Of a DNA stretch of 64,000 nt, positions 42,998 to 49,767 are shown one piece after another. Position 1 is the stretch's first letter. The number at the start of each line of letters is the position of its first letter. The notes below the pieces were generated by a model that ran no database searches, was not told the DNA's origin, and saw only the letters and a list, made by a program, of their open reading frames with translations. A program made the position numbers and the translations under genes. The stretch spans positions 124,001-188,000 of the forward strand of contig NZ_DAHXOI010000003.1 of the NCBI RefSeq assembly GCF_027364955.1, in the 5' to 3' direction. Source of the stretch: Ferrimicrobium sp. Lineage in GTDB: Bacteria; Actinomycetota; Acidimicrobiia; Acidimicrobiales; Acidimicrobiaceae.

Positions 42998-43903
42998 ATG
43001 AGAACCTTGCCGTTGTCTGAGGGCAGTTGGGACTGGACCAAGACGGTCAAAGGCTATGTCGGCCTTACCAAGCCACGCATCATCGAATTGCTCTTGATTA
43101 CGACGGTGCCGGCGATGGTGGTGGCAAAACACGGGCTGCCCTCGCTCTGGTCCATCGTCATCACGGTGGCTGGCGGTACCCTTGCTGCTGGCGGAGCCAA
43201 CGCGGTCAACATGTGGTACGACCGCGATATCGATGCGCTCATGAAGCGAACCAAGAACCGACCGCTCGTCACTGGTGCTGTTTCGCCGACCGGAGCCCTG
43301 ATCTTTGCGATCGCGTTAGAGATCGTCGCCTTTACGATGCTCTCCGTCGGCGACAACGTACTCTCCGCTTCACTAGCCCTCTCTGCCGCGCTCTTCTACG
43401 TCTTTATCTATACGATGTGGCTCAAGCGCTCGACCTCGCAAAACATTGTGATTGGCGGAGCTGCCGGTGCGGTCCCCGTTCTTGTCGGTTGGGCTGCGGT
43501 CACCGATTCGCTCTCCCTCGCTGCCTGGCTCATGTTCTTGGTCATCTTCATCTGGACTCCACCCCACTTCTGGGGTTTGGCTTTCCGTTACTCCGATGAT
43601 TACAGCGCGGCGGGAGTGCCGATGCTTCCGTCGGTGGCGACACGAAAGCGTTCTGCACGTGATATCTTGATCTACACTTTTGTGCTAGCCGCGACCACCG
43701 GCGCACTCGGATTCGTCGCTCATCTCGGATGGGTCTACGCCGTTGCAGCGATCGCTCTCAACGCTGGCTTTATTGGCTATGCGATCAAGCTCTACCGAGA
43801 TCTCACTCCCAAGGTTGCGATGCGTATGTTCTCGTATTCGATCACGTACCTTTCGTTGCTCTTTGTTGGGATGGCGGTTGATGTGGCGGTTCGGGGTCAC
43901 TGA
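42998..43903 (+). CDS. ctaB: Protoheme IX farnesyltransferase
   Basis: A 301-residue UbiA-type prenyltransferase making heme O from heme B for the oxidase. The first Asp-rich motif is NMWYDRDIDALMKRTKNRPL. The second loop reads YSDDYSAAGVPMLP. About nine membrane helices are seen. It begins the oxidase cluster and shares a TGATG with the next gene. No ctaA (heme A synthase) is in the window. Confidence 0.95.
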   Translation: MRTLPLSEGSWDWTKTVKGYVGLTKPRIIELLLITTVPAMVVAKHGLPSLWSIVITVAGGTLAAGGANAVNMWYDRDIDALMKRTKNRPLVTGAVSPTGALIFAIALEIVAFTMLSVGDNVLSASLALSAALFYVFIYTMWLKRSTSQNIVIGGAAGAVPVLVGWAAVTDSLSLAAWLMFLVIFIWTPPHFWGLAFRYSDDYSAAGVPMLPSVATRKRSARDILIYTFVLAATTGALGFVAHLGWVYAVAAIALNAGFIGYAIKLYRDLTPKVAMRMFSYSITYLSLLFVGMAVDVAVRGH

Positions 43904-44523
43904 TGGCGGTTCATGAGCCTCTTGAGCAGCCACGGGTCTCCCGTTTTGGCCCTCGAGTTTGGATCTTCTTGCTGGTGGTATCAGCGATCGTGGTGGTAGC
44001 GTATGCAGTCTATGCCGCGTCGCTCTCTGGGGGCAGTTCAACGACCGCCTCGGCCTCGCTTGGGTCGCTCCCCGAGACCAGGTCTGGTACGTCGCCCCTC
44101 GTCGGCAAACCCGTCCCGAGCTTCTCGTTGCCGGAGTTGACGGCTGATGCCAAGCCAGCTTCGGGCTCAGTATCTCCTGCGGATTTTGCGGGACATCCTC
44201 TGGTCATCAACTTCTTCGCCTCCTGGTGTACGGCGTGCCAGGCAGAGACACCGATGGTAGCTTCCGTTGCTAAAGAGTTCGCTCAGAAGGTCGACTTCCT
44301 TGGTATCGATGAGAATGATACTGCGGCCAAGGCCGAGGCCTTTATTGCCAAGGATCATGTGGACTATCCTGTCGTCACCGACCACGCGTCGCTTCAGGGC
44401 AAGTACCTCCTGATAGGGTTGCCGACGACGGTCTTTGTGGCGGCGAGCGGCAAGGTCGCAGCGGTGGTACAGGGCCAGATGACCTCCCAGGTCTTAACAC
44501 ATTGGCTTTCGCGGATTGAATGA
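43903..44523 (+). CDS. TlpA-like membrane-anchored thioredoxin
   Basis: A 206-residue protein with an N-terminal anchor (VWIFLLVVSAIVVVAYAVYAASL), a Ser/Thr-rich linker and a redoxin domain. FFASWCTACQAETPM carries the CxxC active site, and GLPTTVFV holds the cis-Pro. It faces outside and probably keeps the CuA cysteines or cytochrome cysteines reduced, or assists copper delivery to the oxidase, as its position between ctaB and the cox genes suggests. It overlaps ctaB by one base. Confidence 0.87.
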   Translation: MAVHEPLEQPRVSRFGPRVWIFLLVVSAIVVVAYAVYAASLSGGSSTTASASLGSLPETRSGTSPLVGKPVPSFSLPELTADAKPASGSVSPADFAGHPLVINFFASWCTACQAETPMVASVAKEFAQKVDFLGIDENDTAAKAEAFIAKDHVDYPVVTDHASLQGKYLLIGLPTTVFVAASGKVAAVVQGQMTSQVLTHWLSRIE

Positions 44524-44646: not shown

Positions 44647-45327
44647 TTGAATAAGGGTGCAAGAATTTCGATTGTTCTTGTCTCTGCCGCAGTCGCTGTT
44701 GGATTGATTTTGTTTGGTATCTTTGGGTATCTGCGAACCTATCCGCCAACGGTTGTGTTTACACCTTCTCCTACACAACCACATACGGTTGATGTGACGT
44801 TACAGGTTGAGGGAGCAGTTGGAACAGGGCCTCACCCAAACTGGGTGGGCTGGTATGCAAAGGATGCACAGGGTAAGTGGGTTCGCACAACTCTTTACCA
44901 GGTGCCAGAGAAGACCTATGTGCACGTGACGGTCTATGAGTATGATTCGGGCGGTCCGCTTCGCAATCCATACTGGGGAAAGATCACGGGTACGGTTGGA
45001 AACGATGCTGTTCTCAACGGCAAGGAGGTGAGCGTGCTTGATGCGGCGGCAGGCAATGGCGTCGCGCATACCATGGTCGCTCCTGCGTTGAATCTGTCGG
45101 TCCCCATGTGGGGGCTGTCCGGTACCGAGAAGACCTTCTGTCAGTCGGGGCCGTGTACGTTGGCAAACGCGCACAACACCGAGACCTTTACCTTCTACAC
45201 CGGCAACCATCCTCATAACTATCGTTGGCAGTGCTTCATTCCCTGTGGTGCTGGCTTCTTGAATGGGAATGGTGGTCCGATGGCTGAGACTGGGTATATG
45301 GCTGGTTTCTGGAAGGTGGTGGCCTGA
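44647..45327 (+). CDS. Cupredoxin-like membrane-anchored protein of the oxidase cluster
   Basis: A 226-residue protein starting at TTG 44647, with GGGGGTGAAGG just upstream. One membrane helix (ISIVLVSAAVAVGLILFGIFGYL) anchors an external beta-rich domain. The C-terminus has VAHTMVAPALNLSVPM, then HPHNYRWQCFIPCGAGFLNGNGGPM. The C-x3-C spacing is that of the CuA site, but the His four residues after the second Cys is missing (CGAGF, not CGxxH). A second pair, CQSGPC, lies about 40 residues earlier. It overlaps coxB by one base. It may be a copper protein donating electrons to the oxidase; this is inference. Confidence 0.65.
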   Translation: MNKGARISIVLVSAAVAVGLILFGIFGYLRTYPPTVVFTPSPTQPHTVDVTLQVEGAVGTGPHPNWVGWYAKDAQGKWVRTTLYQVPEKTYVHVTVYEYDSGGPLRNPYWGKITGTVGNDAVLNGKEVSVLDAAAGNGVAHTMVAPALNLSVPMWGLSGTEKTFCQSGPCTLANAHNTETFTFYTGNHPHNYRWQCFIPCGAGFLNGNGGPMAETGYMAGFWKVVA

Positions 45328-46244
45328 TGGCGGTAACCCAAGAGGACATGAACGAGCGCAAGGAGTATGCGAAGAAGGCCGGTTGGCGTATCTTTGCGAT
45401 CTGGCTCGTTCTGTCGTTGATCGGTGTAGCGCTGGTGCTCTACGTGTGGGGACCACATATGCCCCCGGGCGATATGACGACTTCGGCTGCCAGCCAGCAG
45501 TTCGACTTCAAGGTGTTAACTGCGATGGTCGTTCCGGTGTTGTTGATGGTCTGGGTCTACGGAGCTTGGTCGTTGATCAACTTCCATGCCACCAAGGAGG
45601 ATCGTGGGGACGGTATTCCACTACGTGGAAACCGCAAGGTTCAAGGTATTTGGTACGTCGGCTCGGCGGTCTTGGTGCTGTTTCTTGCAGGATTCGGCAC
45701 CTATGAGTTGATCAACGGAAACGGTGTTGGTACTGGTGAGGGACCTTCCCCAATCTGGAAGCCGACGGCGAAGCACATGTTGGTGGTGCAGGTCATCGCC
45801 CAGCAATGGCGCTTTACGTACCGTTGGCCGCAGTTCGGTGGGATGGAGACCACTTCGATCGATCTCCCAGCGAATACGACCATCCAGTTTGACGTGACCT
45901 CACTCGACGTGATTCACGACTTCTGGGCCTATCAACTCGGCGTCAAGGCCGATGCGAACCCGGATGTCAATAACGTCGCTTACACGACCACCTCAAGCCA
46001 ACAGGGGCGTTTCACGGTCCGCTGTGACGAGCTCTGTGGTATTTGGCATGGAGCAATGTATAACTATGGACACGTGGTATCGAAGTCGGCGTTCTACACC
46101 TGGGCGTCGAATATGGAGGCACAGAACGCTTCGGTGACGAAGTTGTTGCCGCCTTTTGCGACCACGTATACTCCCTCGTACTCCGGTGCAGGTGGAGGTT
46201 ATTATCCTTCGTATGACCCCAACGGTCATGCGGTGACGTACTAG
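45327..46244 (+). CDS. ctaC: Cytochrome c oxidase subunit II
   Basis: A 305-residue subunit II with membrane helices near residues 20-43, 62-85 and 108-128, one more than the usual two. The CuA domain contains QQWRFTYRWPQF (the electron-entry Trp), the first His ligand in LDVIHDFWAYQ, and CDELCGIWHGAM with both Cys, Glu, His and Met ligands. The external loop lacks a fused cytochrome c. There is no lipobox. It follows the cupredoxin-like gene with a TGATG overlap. Confidence 0.94.
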   Translation: MAVTQEDMNERKEYAKKAGWRIFAIWLVLSLIGVALVLYVWGPHMPPGDMTTSAASQQFDFKVLTAMVVPVLLMVWVYGAWSLINFHATKEDRGDGIPLRGNRKVQGIWYVGSAVLVLFLAGFGTYELINGNGVGTGEGPSPIWKPTAKHMLVVQVIAQQWRFTYRWPQFGGMETTSIDLPANTTIQFDVTSLDVIHDFWAYQLGVKADANPDVNNVAYTTTSSQQGRFTVRCDELCGIWHGAMYNYGHVVSKSAFYTWASNMEAQNASVTKLLPPFATTYTPSYSGAGGGYYPSYDPNGHAVTY

Positions 46245-46257
46245 AAGGAGCTTGTAA

Positions 46258-48207
46258 ATGGCAATTGACATGACGCCAGCTGCCGGGGTGGGTTCTCCGA
46301 CCGACCTCGAAGCTCGGGGCCTCAAAGCCGCCAAGCCTTGGTTTACTGGCAATATGCTGACCGCCCTCATTGGTGGGGCGATCGGCTATGCCTTTGGCCA
46401 CTGGCTTGGTAACGCCATTGCGTCGAACTACTCCGTTGTAGCTGATGGTGCTGGCAATGAGGTAGCGATCTACCTCTCGCTCATCATCGGCTGTCTCGGG
46501 TGGTTCATAGGGCTTGGTGCGCTGAATTATCCGGTCCAGAAACTCCTGGGACTGGAGCCGATCGATCCTCCAAAGAGTGAGAAGCGGTCGTTTTGGGAGC
46601 ATTTCACCTACTCGACGGATCACAAGGTCGTCGGTGTGCAGTATCTGTTCGGCATGTTGCTCTACTTCCTCGTTGCAGGGTTGTTAGCACTGGGTATTCG
46701 TACCGAGTTGCTCTCACCGGTGAACCATATCTGGGCACCGGATACCTACATCGAGATCGTAGGTGAGCATGGCACCATGATGATGATGATGATGACCTCG
46801 ATCATCATGGGTCCGTTCGGTAACTATCTGATTCCGCTCATGATTGGGTCGAAGAAGATGGCGTTTCCACGACTCGAGGCCTCGTCCTTCTGGTTCACGG
46901 TACCGTCATTCTTCATTCTGCTCTCTGCTCTGTGGCAGGGCGGGTTCCAGTCTGGTTGGACGGGATATGCACCACTATCGATTCAAGGAGGTCCAGGTCA
47001 AAGCGACTATGATGTTGCCTTCGCCTTGATGGCCCTGTCGATGATCTGTGCGTCGATCAATATGACTGCTACTATCATCAACTACCGAGCACCGGGTATG
47101 CGCTGGTCGCGGATGCCGATCCTTGCCTGGGGTATGATTACGGTGGCCTTCACGATGCTGCTTTCGGTACCGGTCCTCTTCGATGGGCTCTATGTGATGA
47201 GTCTTGACCGAGGCGTGCGTACTGCGATGCTCTATGCGGGCCATGGGGGGAGCTCCTTCCTTTGGGAGAACCTCTTCTGGTTCTTTGGACACCCCGAGGT
47301 CTACCTGCTGGCGTTGCCGGGCTTCGCTCTCACCGTTGAGCTACTTCCCGTCTTTGCGCGCAAACCGGTCTTTGCGCTGAAGACTTCGACGGCGGGTCTC
47401 ATCGGAGTGGCGGTATTGAGCTTCTTCGTGTGGCAGCACCACCTCTTCATGTCGGGCATGAACCCGGATATGCGTCCGTTGTTCATGTTGACGACAGAGC
47501 TGATCTCCATTCCTACTGGGTTCTTGTACCTGGTGGCGATGGGTACGGTCTGGCGTGGCAAGATCCGCTTCGAGGTTCCAATGCTCTTCCTCTTGGCAGT
47601 GTTCTGGAACTTCCTCTGGGGTGGTGTAACTGGTGTGTACAACTCTGACGTTCCAGTGGACGCCTTGGTCCACGGAAGCTTCTTTGTTATGGCCCACTTC
47701 CACTTCACGATTATGGGGCAGCTCATCTTCGCGGTCTTTGCGGGCGTCTATTACTACGTCCCCTTGATCTTTGGTATCAGATTGAACGACAAGCTTGGAA
47801 AGGTCAGTTTCTGGATCATCTTTGTGGCCTTTAACTCCACCTTCTTGCCGTTGTTCATGATCGGGCTGTTGGGTCAGCCGCGACGTGTCTTTGAGTATGC
47901 GATTCGTCTGCAGCACCTCAATCAGTGGGTCTCGGTCTCCTCGTATGTCCTGGGTTTTGGTATCTTGTTGTACGTGTTCAACCTCATCTGGTCGCTTGCG
48001 GTCACGAGGACCCCTGCTGGTCCTAACCCGTGGGAGTCGCGAGGTCTCGAGTGGCAGGTGGGTTACCCAGTGCCGCGCGATAACTTTGTGAAGATTCCCG
48101 TGGTGCACCGTGATCCGTACGGTTATGGAACCGGTGATGATACGCCAGTGGCTGACTTGAATCCCGTGGGTGACAAGGCTGCGGTGGTAACAGGAGGTGA
48201 TGCGTAG
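46258..48207 (+). CDS. ctaD: Cytochrome c oxidase subunit I
   Basis: A 649-residue heme-copper oxidase subunit I, with about 95 extra N-terminal residues holding two hydrophobic segments. Heme a ligands are His171 (GEHGTMM) and His482. CuB ligands are His345 in GHPEVY, with crosslinking Tyr349, and His394/His395 in WQHHLF. His480 is the heme a3 ligand, and His472 the Mg-site His. The region normally reading GAPDMAFPR reads GSKKMAFPR (Lys200 for the D-channel Asp), and PTGIKVF reads PTGFLYL (Leu423 for the K-channel Lys). AAGGAG precedes the ATG. Subunit III overlaps its stop by one base. Confidence 0.95.
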   Translation: MAIDMTPAAGVGSPTDLEARGLKAAKPWFTGNMLTALIGGAIGYAFGHWLGNAIASNYSVVADGAGNEVAIYLSLIIGCLGWFIGLGALNYPVQKLLGLEPIDPPKSEKRSFWEHFTYSTDHKVVGVQYLFGMLLYFLVAGLLALGIRTELLSPVNHIWAPDTYIEIVGEHGTMMMMMMTSIIMGPFGNYLIPLMIGSKKMAFPRLEASSFWFTVPSFFILLSALWQGGFQSGWTGYAPLSIQGGPGQSDYDVAFALMALSMICASINMTATIINYRAPGMRWSRMPILAWGMITVAFTMLLSVPVLFDGLYVMSLDRGVRTAMLYAGHGGSSFLWENLFWFFGHPEVYLLALPGFALTVELLPVFARKPVFALKTSTAGLIGVAVLSFFVWQHHLFMSGMNPDMRPLFMLTTELISIPTGFLYLVAMGTVWRGKIRFEVPMLFLLAVFWNFLWGGVTGVYNSDVPVDALVHGSFFVMAHFHFTIMGQLIFAVFAGVYYYVPLIFGIRLNDKLGKVSFWIIFVAFNSTFLPLFMIGLLGQPRRVFEYAIRLQHLNQWVSVSSYVLGFGILLYVFNLIWSLAVTRTPAGPNPWESRGLEWQVGYPVPRDNFVKIPVVHRDPYGYGTGDDTPVADLNPVGDKAAVVTGGDA

Positions 48208-48866
48208 TGGCTACTGATGTGCAATCAGCCGATGCGCAGCCGGTCATCGATGAGGAGCAGTACTACCATGACGCCCAGTTAGGTGCGCTCTGGACTGCTT
48301 CGCGTACCTTGATACCGGTGGTAGCGGCGACCTTTGGTGGCATCTACTTCGCCTATTTCTACCTGCGGTCGCTCAACTCGAATGGGTTGTGGGATCCGCA
48401 TGGGCAGACGGCGTCGAAGATCATCGGGTTGTCGATACTGTTGTTGGTCCTTGTTGGGACGGCCTTTCAGTTGATGGCAGGACGACGGCTACGTAGAGGA
48501 TTTAGTACGGACTTCATCGTCGGTACCGCTGCGAATGCGTTGTTCCTGGTGATCGCCACCGGTCTGCAGATCTGGGAGCTCACACGGCTCCCATTTCCGC
48601 CAGCAGCGAGTGGGTATGCCGGGGTCTTCATCGCGTTTGGACCCATCAATGCACTTGTCATCGGGCTTAGTGCGTATTGGGTGTTCACGTTGATGATGCG
48701 TGCGATTAGGAGCTATAACTTCTACCGTGCTGATGGCGGTATTGGGATTTCGGCGCATCGTGCAGCCGAGAACTTCCGTGCCAATGTCGACGGTTTCGGA
48801 GCCTATGGCATCTTCTTTGCGCTGTTGTCGATCCTGTCCTGGTACCTGTTCTACGTTCTTCATTAG
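48207..48866 (+). CDS. ctaE: Cytochrome c oxidase subunit III-like protein
   Basis: A 219-residue protein with five or six membrane helices, starting at GTG 48207. It lies where subunit III is expected. TFGGIYFAYFYLRS and the final NVDGFGAYGIFFALLSILSWYLFYVLH resemble the first and last helices of subunit III, although the conserved Glu and His of classical sequences are not obvious, so the assignment rests partly on context. Confidence 0.75.
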   Translation: MATDVQSADAQPVIDEEQYYHDAQLGALWTASRTLIPVVAATFGGIYFAYFYLRSLNSNGLWDPHGQTASKIIGLSILLLVLVGTAFQLMAGRRLRRGFSTDFIVGTAANALFLVIATGLQIWELTRLPFPPAASGYAGVFIAFGPINALVIGLSAYWVFTLMMRAIRSYNFYRADGGIGISAHRAAENFRANVDGFGAYGIFFALLSILSWYLFYVLH

Positions 48867-48966: not shown

Positions 48967-49767
48967 ATGATTTCGTTGATAGTCATTGGGCTCTTCTCGC
49001 TCTCGTGCGTCATCGCGGGCGTTTACCTCGTCCGACGAGCGGGTAGTGTTCGAGGCATTCGGGGAAGGTTGGGACTTGCGGTGCTTGCACTCGGTGTTCT
49101 GATGAACCCTGCTTCTATCGATTTCGCTACCCGGTCCCTCTGGTTCCACTCGTTGCTGTTGGTGTTGGTCTCGCTCTGGCTCATCTTGGTGGTGCTCTCC
49201 AAGGAGGTTATCCGTGGTATCGACCGGATCAAGGATCGTGGCCGCTGGGCCGTGCTGGGTCTCCAGTGGGTCTGGGGACTGGTCGTACTGCAAGATATTC
49301 TGCTCTGGGTCGGTTTCCAGGATGGTTTCGAACGCGCTGCGGCAAACGATCCGTTACTGTTGGCTGTATTGATCTACCTTGAGGTTGCAGCCTCGGGTGC
49401 GATCATCTACGTGCTCTCCGGTGATGGGCGGCCGCGGGTGACGCACGTACGTCAGGTGATCATCGCCTGGTCGTCCGCGATGGTCATCATGGCGCTAGGG
49501 GTGTCGTTGGGTCTCTCCGGTCCTTGGTTCGGTTTCGTTTCGGCGTCGGCTGCGGCGTTACACCAAGAGGCGGAGCAACAGATTGCTGCCGTCATCTTCG
49601 TCATCCTCGGAGGTGCTCCGTGGTTCCTTATCGGTACGCAGAAGATGCGGCTGTGGCTGGAGTCAGAGGAGCGCGAGGCGGTGGTGAGCTTTGCCTCTCC
49701 GGTGCATCGTTTTGGTCGTTCGGTTAAGGTCAATCAAGTGAGGCGGGGGCGCGTTGAAGGGAGGTGA
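48967..49767 (+). CDS. CtaG-like cytochrome oxidase assembly protein
   Basis: A 266-residue membrane protein with about seven helices. WFHSLLLVLVSLWLILVVL, VVLQDILLWVGFQDGFERAAANDPLL, LHQEAEQQIAAVIFVILGGAPWFL and the final MRLWLESEEREA follow the pattern of the caa3-type CtaG family, in which the 'DQQ(x)G' helix is here EAEQQIAAVI. It probably helps insert copper into the oxidase. A 100-bp gap separates it from subunit III. The small ORF that follows begins directly after its stop. Confidence 0.77.
   Translation: MISLIVIGLFSLSCVIAGVYLVRRAGSVRGIRGRLGLAVLALGVLMNPASIDFATRSLWFHSLLLVLVSLWLILVVLSKEVIRGIDRIKDRGRWAVLGLQWVWGLVVLQDILLWVGFQDGFERAAANDPLLLAVLIYLEVAASGAIIYVLSGDGRPRVTHVRQVIIAWSSAMVIMALGVSLGLSGPWFGFVSASAAALHQEAEQQIAAVIFVILGGAPWFLIGTQKMRLWLESEEREAVVSFASPVHRFGRSVKVNQVRRGRVEGR

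What the first reader, a model, noticed from the sequence alone, without database searches (positions are those of the whole stretch)
46258..48207. Oxidase subunit I without standard D- and K-channel residues
All heme and copper ligands and the crosslinked Tyr are present. Yet the D-channel entry Asp is replaced by Lys (GSKKMAFPR) and the K-channel Lys by Leu (PTGFLYL). Proton delivery must use another route or be partly abolished. In an acidophile taking electrons from high-potential Fe(II), an oxidase that consumes but does not pump protons would make sense.
Basis: partly seen in the sequence, partly recalled or inferred. Interest (0 to 1): 0.65.

Follow-up and report, generated by a model that had tools for sequence, protein, structure and literature searches.

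The report
Cytochrome oxidase with relocated proton-channel acid
An oxygen-reducing enzyme of a probably acid-loving actinobacterium lacks one of the two usual proton channels and has moved the key acid of the other to the very spot where laboratory mutations stop such enzymes from pumping protons, so it may be a natural non-pumping version.

Summary
Subunit I (window 46258-48207) has every heme/CuB ligand and the cross-link Tyr. The D-channel entry Asp (R. sphaeroides, Rs, D132) is Lys200 and the K-channel Lys (Rs K362) is Leu423. Among 148 distinct COX1 sequences, 102/102 with D132 have N139; 46/46 without D132 have Glu (45) or Gln (1) there. The 46 form one clade (support 100/99) in Actinomycetota and Chloroflexota. 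The K-channel is missing throughout the larger '2TM' oxidase group, so that loss is not specific to this enzyme. Acidifying this Asn in Rs or Paracoccus (N131D, PDB 3ehb) leaves O2 reduction running but abolishes pumping. Best reading: a D-channel whose carboxylate was relocated inward, feeding substrate protons, with pumping weak or absent. This is inferred; no activity data exist. The gene neighbour is an AcoP-like cupredoxin, as in the At. ferrooxidans iron-oxidation operon. The host also has an ordinary aa3 oxidase with both channels. New variant of a known kind.

The parts
46258..48207 (+). coxA: heme-copper oxidase subunit I, 649 aa, with two extra N-terminal transmembrane helices (model helices 33-55 and 68-86)
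   Evidence: AlphaFold model mean pLDDT 87; best PDB match R. sphaeroides aa3 subunit I, Z 52, rmsd 1.2 A, 497 residues
46852..46857 (+). codons K199-K200 (AAG AAG): Rs P131-D132; D-channel entry Asp replaced by Lys
   Evidence: numbering; K/R/G/N at this site in 46/46 clade members, D in 102/102 others
46876..46878 (+). codon E207 (GAG): Rs N139 / Paracoccus N131 / bovine N98, the decoupling site of the D-channel
   Evidence: E in 45 and Q in 1 of 46 clade members, N in 102/102 others; N131D = PDB 3ehb
46822..46824 (+). codon N189: Rs N121, D-channel Asn, retained
   Evidence: N in 45/46
47059..47061 (+). codon N268: Rs N207, D-channel Asn, retained
   Evidence: N in 45/46
47296..47298 (+). 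codon E347: Rs E286, end of the D-channel, retained
   Evidence: E in 46/46
47335..47337 (+). codon V360: Rs S299, K-channel Ser lost
47497..47499 (+). codon E414: Rs M353, helix VIII Glu, a signature of the whole 2TM group
   Evidence: E in 73/73 2TM sequences, never in 75 canonical ones
47524..47526 (+). codon L423: Rs K362, K-channel Lys replaced by Leu
   Evidence: no Lys in 46/46
45327..46244 (+). coxB: subunit II with complete CuA site (H, CxExCxxxHxxM)
   Evidence: Pfam COX2 E 1e-12, TIGR02866 E 3e-30, alignment
45642..45644 (+). codon Q106 of coxB: position of the K-channel entry Glu of subunit II (Rs E101)
   Evidence: alignment: Glu in most canonical CoxB, Gln in most of this clade (T in L029, E in L043)
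44647..45327 (+). AcoP-like membrane-anchored cupredoxin (start codon TTG)
   Evidence: only PDB sequence matches are AcoP (E 0.09-0.17); fold matches rusticyanin first (E 7.5e-4); present beside 40/46 clade members and 0/75 canonical COX1
48207..48866 (+). coxC: probable subunit III
   Evidence: position after coxA; homologue fused to the C-terminus of COX1 in L029; a Chloroflexota homologue reaches COX3 E 0.003; the window protein itself has no Pfam COX3 hit
42998..43903 (+). ctaB: heme o synthase
   Evidence: NF003349 E 2.5e-118
43903..44523 (+). TlpA/ResA-like thiol-disulfide protein
   Evidence: AhpC-TSA E 2.6e-17, ResA-like E 1e-21
48967..49767 (+). integral membrane protein, possibly caa3_CtaG-like assembly factor
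   Evidence: position and a QQ..GG..WFL stretch judged by eye; no significant Pfam match

Best explanation
This is the catalytic subunit of a heme-aa3-type oxidase from a deep '2TM', AcoP-associated branch of family A oxidases. Shown: the K-channel residues are gone in both subunits, and the D-channel keeps its interior and its terminal Glu (E347), but its carboxylate has moved from the mouth (D132 to K200) to the Asn bottleneck (N139 to E207). Inferred: protons for water formation enter from the cytoplasm past K199/K200 to E207 and run along N189, N268 and water to E347 and the heme a3-CuB site. Because the Asn bottleneck that is thought to prevent back-leak of pumped protons is now acidic, as in the N139D/N131D laboratory mutants, pumping is weak or absent, and energy is conserved only by taking electrons from outside and protons from inside. 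That would suit electrons from a high-potential donor such as Fe(II). I put about 0.7 on E207 serving the D-channel and about 0.55 on little or no pumping.
For: Strict pairing of D132 loss with an N139 to E/Q change in 148 distinct sequences, on a single branch with 100/99 support. Y33, N121, N207 and E286 kept in 45-46 of 46. Purifying selection. K362, S299 and subunit-II E101 replaced. Same fold as Rs aa3 (Z 52, rmsd 1.2 A). Literature: N98D/T/S (= N139) retain normal O2 reduction but lose pumping (PMC12901375); Rs N139D uncoupled with slightly raised activity (PMC6934443); PDB 3ehb is titled a D-pathway mutation that decouples the Paracoccus enzyme and carries Asp at N131 (sequence checked); adding a decoupling N139 mutation to a K362M enzyme restores an early oxidative step (PMC12901375). 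From memory, not readable here: D132N/N139T in Rs takes up protons fast without Asp132 but pumps poorly (Johansson et al. 2013; look-up failed).
Against: No measurement exists for any member. Glu rather than Asp sits at N139, with Lys/Arg at D132, a pair I know of in no mutant study. PMC6934443 reports that equivalent mutants of the mammalian enzyme showed no effect on pumping. In bacterial enzymes, blocking the K-channel essentially stops heme a3 reduction (PMC12901375), so a D-only enzyme needs a further change not identified here. L029 has Gln at 139 and Arg at 132, so one member has no carboxylate at either place. Single evolutionary origin means the pairing is one event, not repeated independent evidence. 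Model coordinates could not be inspected.
Confidence: 0.52

Rival explanations
1. Relocated D-channel that still pumps: E207 replaces D132 as proton acceptor, compensating changes (S201 to M, K199/K200) restore the barrier, and the enzyme pumps as an ordinary A-type oxidase, perhaps with electrons of lower potential than Fe(II).
For: E286, the propionate arginines (R542/R543) and W172/Y175 equivalents are kept; Rs S201 is M/L/I in 44/46 members, a second change inside the D-channel; equivalent mammalian mutants reportedly still pumped (PMC6934443).
Against: The bacterial N139/N131 acid mutants quoted in the papers read are decoupled. For Fe(II) at +0.77 V (PMC13053071) against O2 at cytoplasmic pH about 6.5 (about 0.84 V, own arithmetic) one pumped H+ per electron against 4-4.5 pH units is not affordable.
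Confidence: 0.25
2. The D-channel is plugged: K200 (or R) and E207 form a salt bridge that seals it, and protons reach the active site by another route, for example along helix VIII (E414, S417, T420) or a C-type-like K-channel variant.
For: E414, S417, D464 and N451 are conserved polar residues of the whole 2TM group and rare or absent in canonical COX1. Degli Esposti et al. 2021 state that family A and C share residues of a variant K(C)-channel (PMC8239418). T. thermophilus ba3 has Arg at D132 and an inactive D-channel (PMC12901375).
Against: If the channel were dead, Y33, N121, N207 and E286 should drift, but they stay in 45-46 of 46. In L128 and L129 position 132 is Gly or Asn, so no such salt bridge is possible there, yet Glu at 139 is kept. 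E414 aligns to Rs M353, nine residues from K362 toward the periplasmic end of the helix, so it is not a substitute for K362 (inference from helix direction).
Confidence: 0.13
3. The residues at the channel sites reflect an ancestral oxidase that never had the standard channels, so nothing was lost.
For: Degli Esposti et al. 2021 place 2TM COX1 at the base of bacterial COX1 (PMC8239418); K362 is missing throughout the 2TM group, so this may well hold for the K-channel.
Against: For the D-channel: two other 2TM groups and all canonical COX1 have D132 + N139, so by parsimony that pair is the older state and the Glu139 clade is derived, unless the root lies inside that clade.
Confidence: 0.08
4. 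The enzyme is a decayed or non-oxidase paralogue.
For: The genome has a second, canonical aa3.
Against: All metal ligands kept; intact coxB with CuA; dN/dS 0.02-0.11; conserved gene cluster in dozens of genomes.
Confidence: 0.02

Closest known systems
2TM COX1 clade of acidophilic iron oxidisers (Degli Esposti et al. 2021, PMC8239418)
   Same: Two extra N-terminal helices, K-channel variant, ctaB nearby, and a gene neighbourhood of acidophile iron-oxidiser type
   Different: In that paper's main text I found no mention of a D132-to-K / N139-to-E pair; its supplementary figure 7 on channel variants could not be read, and Acidithiobacillus CoxA was not recovered here for comparison
Acidithiobacillus ferrooxidans rus-operon aa3 oxidase with AcoP (PMC2754497, PMC4059628)
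   Same: Order cupredoxin-coxB-coxA-coxC; cupredoxin anchored by an N-terminal helix
   Different: No cyc1/cyc2/rus in the adjoining ORFs examined; the cupredoxin lacks the equivalent of copper ligand H166 and has an extra conserved Cys
Decoupled D-channel mutants Rs N139D / Paracoccus N131D (PDB 3ehb)
   Same: Acidic residue at the same Asn; E286 and the rest of the channel kept
   Different: Here natural, Glu instead of Asp, combined with loss of D132 and of the K-channel
Canonical actinobacterial aa3 (e.g. Mycobacterium 6adq; own-genome L001)
   Same: Same fold and metal sites, HPEVY motif; about 40% identity
   Different: D132, N139 and K362 all present there; no 2TM extension, no AcoP-like neighbour
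Family B ba3 of Thermus thermophilus
   Same: Arg at the D132 position, no D-entry Asp (PMC12901375 table 2)
   Different: ba3 lacks the D-channel Asn residues and E286 and uses a K-type channel; this enzyme shows the reverse pattern

Membership tests
Heme-copper oxidase family A, A1 subtype | Heme a/a3 and CuB ligands and Tyr in HPEVY | tested here: met
   H171, H480, H482, H345, H394, H395, Y349
Heme-copper oxidase family A, A1 subtype | Glu in GHPEV (E286, D-channel end) | tested here: met
   E347
Heme-copper oxidase family A, A1 subtype | D-channel entry Asp (D132) | tested here: not met
   K200
Heme-copper oxidase family A, A1 subtype | K-channel Lys (K362), Ser299 and subunit II Glu101 | tested here: not met
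   L423, V360, CoxB Q106
Heme-copper oxidase family A, A1 subtype | Fold of A-type subunit I | tested here: met
   Z 52, rmsd 1.2 A, 497 residues to Rs subunit I
2TM COX1 clade (Degli Esposti 2021) | Two extra N-terminal transmembrane helices | tested here: met
   Model helices 33-55 and 68-86 before helix I at 122
2TM COX1 clade (Degli Esposti 2021) | Groups with Acidithiobacillus COX1 in a tree | not tested
   Acidithiobacillus CoxA was not found by the searches available
2TM COX1 clade (Degli Esposti 2021) | caa3_CtaG gene in the cluster | tested here: inconclusive
   48967-49767 looks similar by eye, no profile match
AcoP cupredoxin (gene 44647-45327) | Encoded in the cytochrome oxidase cluster | tested here: met
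AcoP cupredoxin (gene 44647-45327) | Cupredoxin fold | tested here: inconclusive
   Rusticyanin and CuA domains are the top fold matches but at E about 1e-3 and TM about 0.5
AcoP cupredoxin (gene 44647-45327) | Copper ligands H85, C159-X6-H166-X4-M171 | tested here: not met
   H141 and C196 present; position C+7 is F203, no His; conserved C200, M212, M218 instead
Non-pumping oxidase | Measured H+/e- of zero pumped | not testable with these tools
   Needs purified enzyme in vesicles

The most novel reading that the evidence does not exclude
A whole natural clade of family A oxidases (Actinomycetota and Chloroflexota) has fixed the equivalent of the laboratory decoupling mutation: with the K-channel gone and D132 replaced, usually by a base, all substrate protons enter a single D-channel through Glu at the N139 position, and the enzyme reduces O2 without pumping.
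Probability: 0.42. Interest if true: 0.8.

Novelty: new variant of a known kind. Interest (0 to 1): 0.6.

Why it matters
How cytochrome oxidase couples O2 reduction to pumping, and why changing one Asn in the D-channel uncouples it, is a long-standing question studied mainly with laboratory mutants. A clade that fixed an acid at that same Asn, together with loss of D132 and of the K-channel, is a natural experiment. It would show whether one relocated channel can supply all protons, and whether evolution gives up pumping when the electron donor leaves too little energy to pay for it.

Tried and rejected
Alignment artefact: rejected, since alignments of 37 to 151 sequences, phmmer to PDB chains and the structural match agree. 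A first residue map made with --keeplength slipped by four after Rs 139 and was replaced. Sequencing error or pseudogene: rejected. Acidophile-specific loss of the K-channel: rejected, since the loss covers all 73 2TM sequences. Correlated evolution by independent pairs: only one independent event, so no statistical support beyond the single branch. Profile search of the AcoP-like alignment against PDB found only chance zinc-finger matches. Papers by DOI on uncoupled variants and on D132/N139 double mutants were not held. Model coordinates were not exposed, so distances and water paths were not computed.

Full report
WHAT IS THERE. The ORF at 46258-48207(+) encodes 649 residues and is a heme-copper oxidase subunit I. 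Upstream are coxB (45327-46244), an AcoP-like cupredoxin (44647-45327), a TlpA/ResA-like protein (43903-44523) and ctaB (42998-43903). Downstream are a probable subunit III (48207-48866) and a membrane protein (48967-49767). Using the R. sphaeroides (Rs) 1m56 sequence for numbering, all six metal-ligand histidines and the cross-link Tyr are present, Rs D132 is K200 and Rs K362 is L423.

Rs N139 is E207. Y33, N121, N207 and E286 are all kept (Y129, N189, N268, E347). The K-channel is missing more thoroughly than reported: Rs S299 is V360, and the subunit-II entry Glu (Rs E101) is Gln106 of CoxB. The subunit II CuA site is complete.

HOW GENERAL IT IS. Among 148 distinct COX1 sequences, all 102 with D132 have Asn at 139, and all 46 without D132 have Glu (45) or Gln (1, L029) there. 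The residue at 132 in the 46 is Arg 29, Lys 15, Gly 1, Asn 1. The 46 form one branch with 100/99 support in a careful tree of 48 rows and 99 in a quick tree of 79, with the trait columns removed; the tree needs one change for D132 and one for N139. The branch contains Actinomycetota (the window's family and others) and Chloroflexota. Because the change occurred once, the pairing is a single event and not statistical proof of coupling. Within the clade, however, Gly or Asn at 132 (L128, L129) still goes with Glu at 139, so it is the Glu, not the base, that is held.

THE K-CHANNEL. Lys362 is absent from all 73 sequences that carry the 2TM signature Glu at Rs M353 (E414), including 27 that keep D132. 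Its absence is therefore a property of the larger group and not tied to the D-channel change. It is also absent in 9 of 75 canonical sequences.

CONTEXT. An AcoP-like cupredoxin gene lies beside 40 of 46 clade members and 13 of 14 of their closest D132-bearing relatives, but beside none of 13 YSHPAVY-type 2TM oxidases and none of 75 canonical ones. At least two of the six misses are contig or locus edges, and in L154 the gene lies downstream of coxA instead. AcoP is the 'acidophile cytochrome c oxidase partner' of At. ferrooxidans, whose iron-oxidation operon has the order cup(acoP)-coxB-coxA-coxC (PMC2754497; PMC4059628). The window protein resembles AcoP in position and anchor and probably in fold (rusticyanin is the top fold match; only AcoP chains match by sequence, weakly) but lacks one AcoP copper ligand. 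The host genome has CtaA and a second, canonical aa3 with D132, N139 and K362 (L001).

MECHANISM. Shown: the residue changes, their fixation, purifying selection (dN/dS 0.02-0.11), and the shared fold. From the literature: bacterial N139 mutants to Asp, Thr or Ser keep O2 reduction and lose pumping (PMC12901375; PMC6934443), and PDB 3ehb is the Paracoccus N131D case. Simulations attribute this to loss of a barrier to back-leak at this bottleneck (PMC12901375). Adding such a mutation to a K362M enzyme restores an early oxidative step. Inferred: E207 is the working carboxylate of the D-channel, and pumping is weak or absent. Energetics (own arithmetic): O2/H2O at pH 6.5 is about 0.84 V and Fe(III)/Fe(II) about 0.77 V at pH 2 (PMC13053071), so less than 0.1 V is available before concentration terms, while moving a proton across 4.5 pH units costs about 0.27 V minus any inside-positive potential. 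One pumped proton per electron is not affordable on Fe(II). Whether this enzyme serves Fe(II) oxidation was not tested.

LIMITS. There are no biochemical data. N139E with D132K has, to my knowledge, not been made in the laboratory. The report that equivalent mammalian mutants still pump is a real counter-argument. The heme a3 reduction step normally depends on the K-channel, so the enzyme must solve that step in a way I cannot identify. Acidithiobacillus CoxA and the supplementary channel figure of PMC8239418 could not be examined, so novelty is judged on an incomplete literature.

VERDICT. Observation confirmed, interpretation partly supported. This is a new variant of a known kind: a 2TM family A oxidase that fails the channel-based definition of an A1 oxidase and most likely works like a decoupled A1 oxidase.

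Noticed in passing
window 44647-45327: The AcoP-like cupredoxin family has invariant H141, C196, C200, M212 and M218; the CxxxC pair and missing second His suggest a copper site different from that of AcoP, with a Cys spacing like that of CuA.
   Followed up: partly
window 47497-47499, 47608-47610, 47647-47649: E414, N451 and D464 of COX1 are invariant or nearly invariant polar residues of all 2TM oxidases and absent from nearly all canonical ones; their role is unknown.
   Followed up: no
window 47674-47676: G473 stands where Rs D412 is, which I recall as a ligand of the Mg/Mn site; Gly in 45/46 of the clade and in all 14 of its D132-bearing AcoP-associated relatives.
   Followed up: no
L001 (G000 contig C1: 24974-26311): The same genome carries a canonical aa3 subunit I with both proton channels, 39% identical to the window protein.
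   Followed up: partly
L029:877-3420(-): COX1 fused to a subunit III-like part, with Arg at D132 and Gln (not Glu) at N139: no carboxylate at either channel position.
   Followed up: partly
L153, L154: Some Chloroflexota clade members have a different gene order, with coxA first and coxB (plus, in L154, the AcoP-like gene) downstream.
   Followed up: partly
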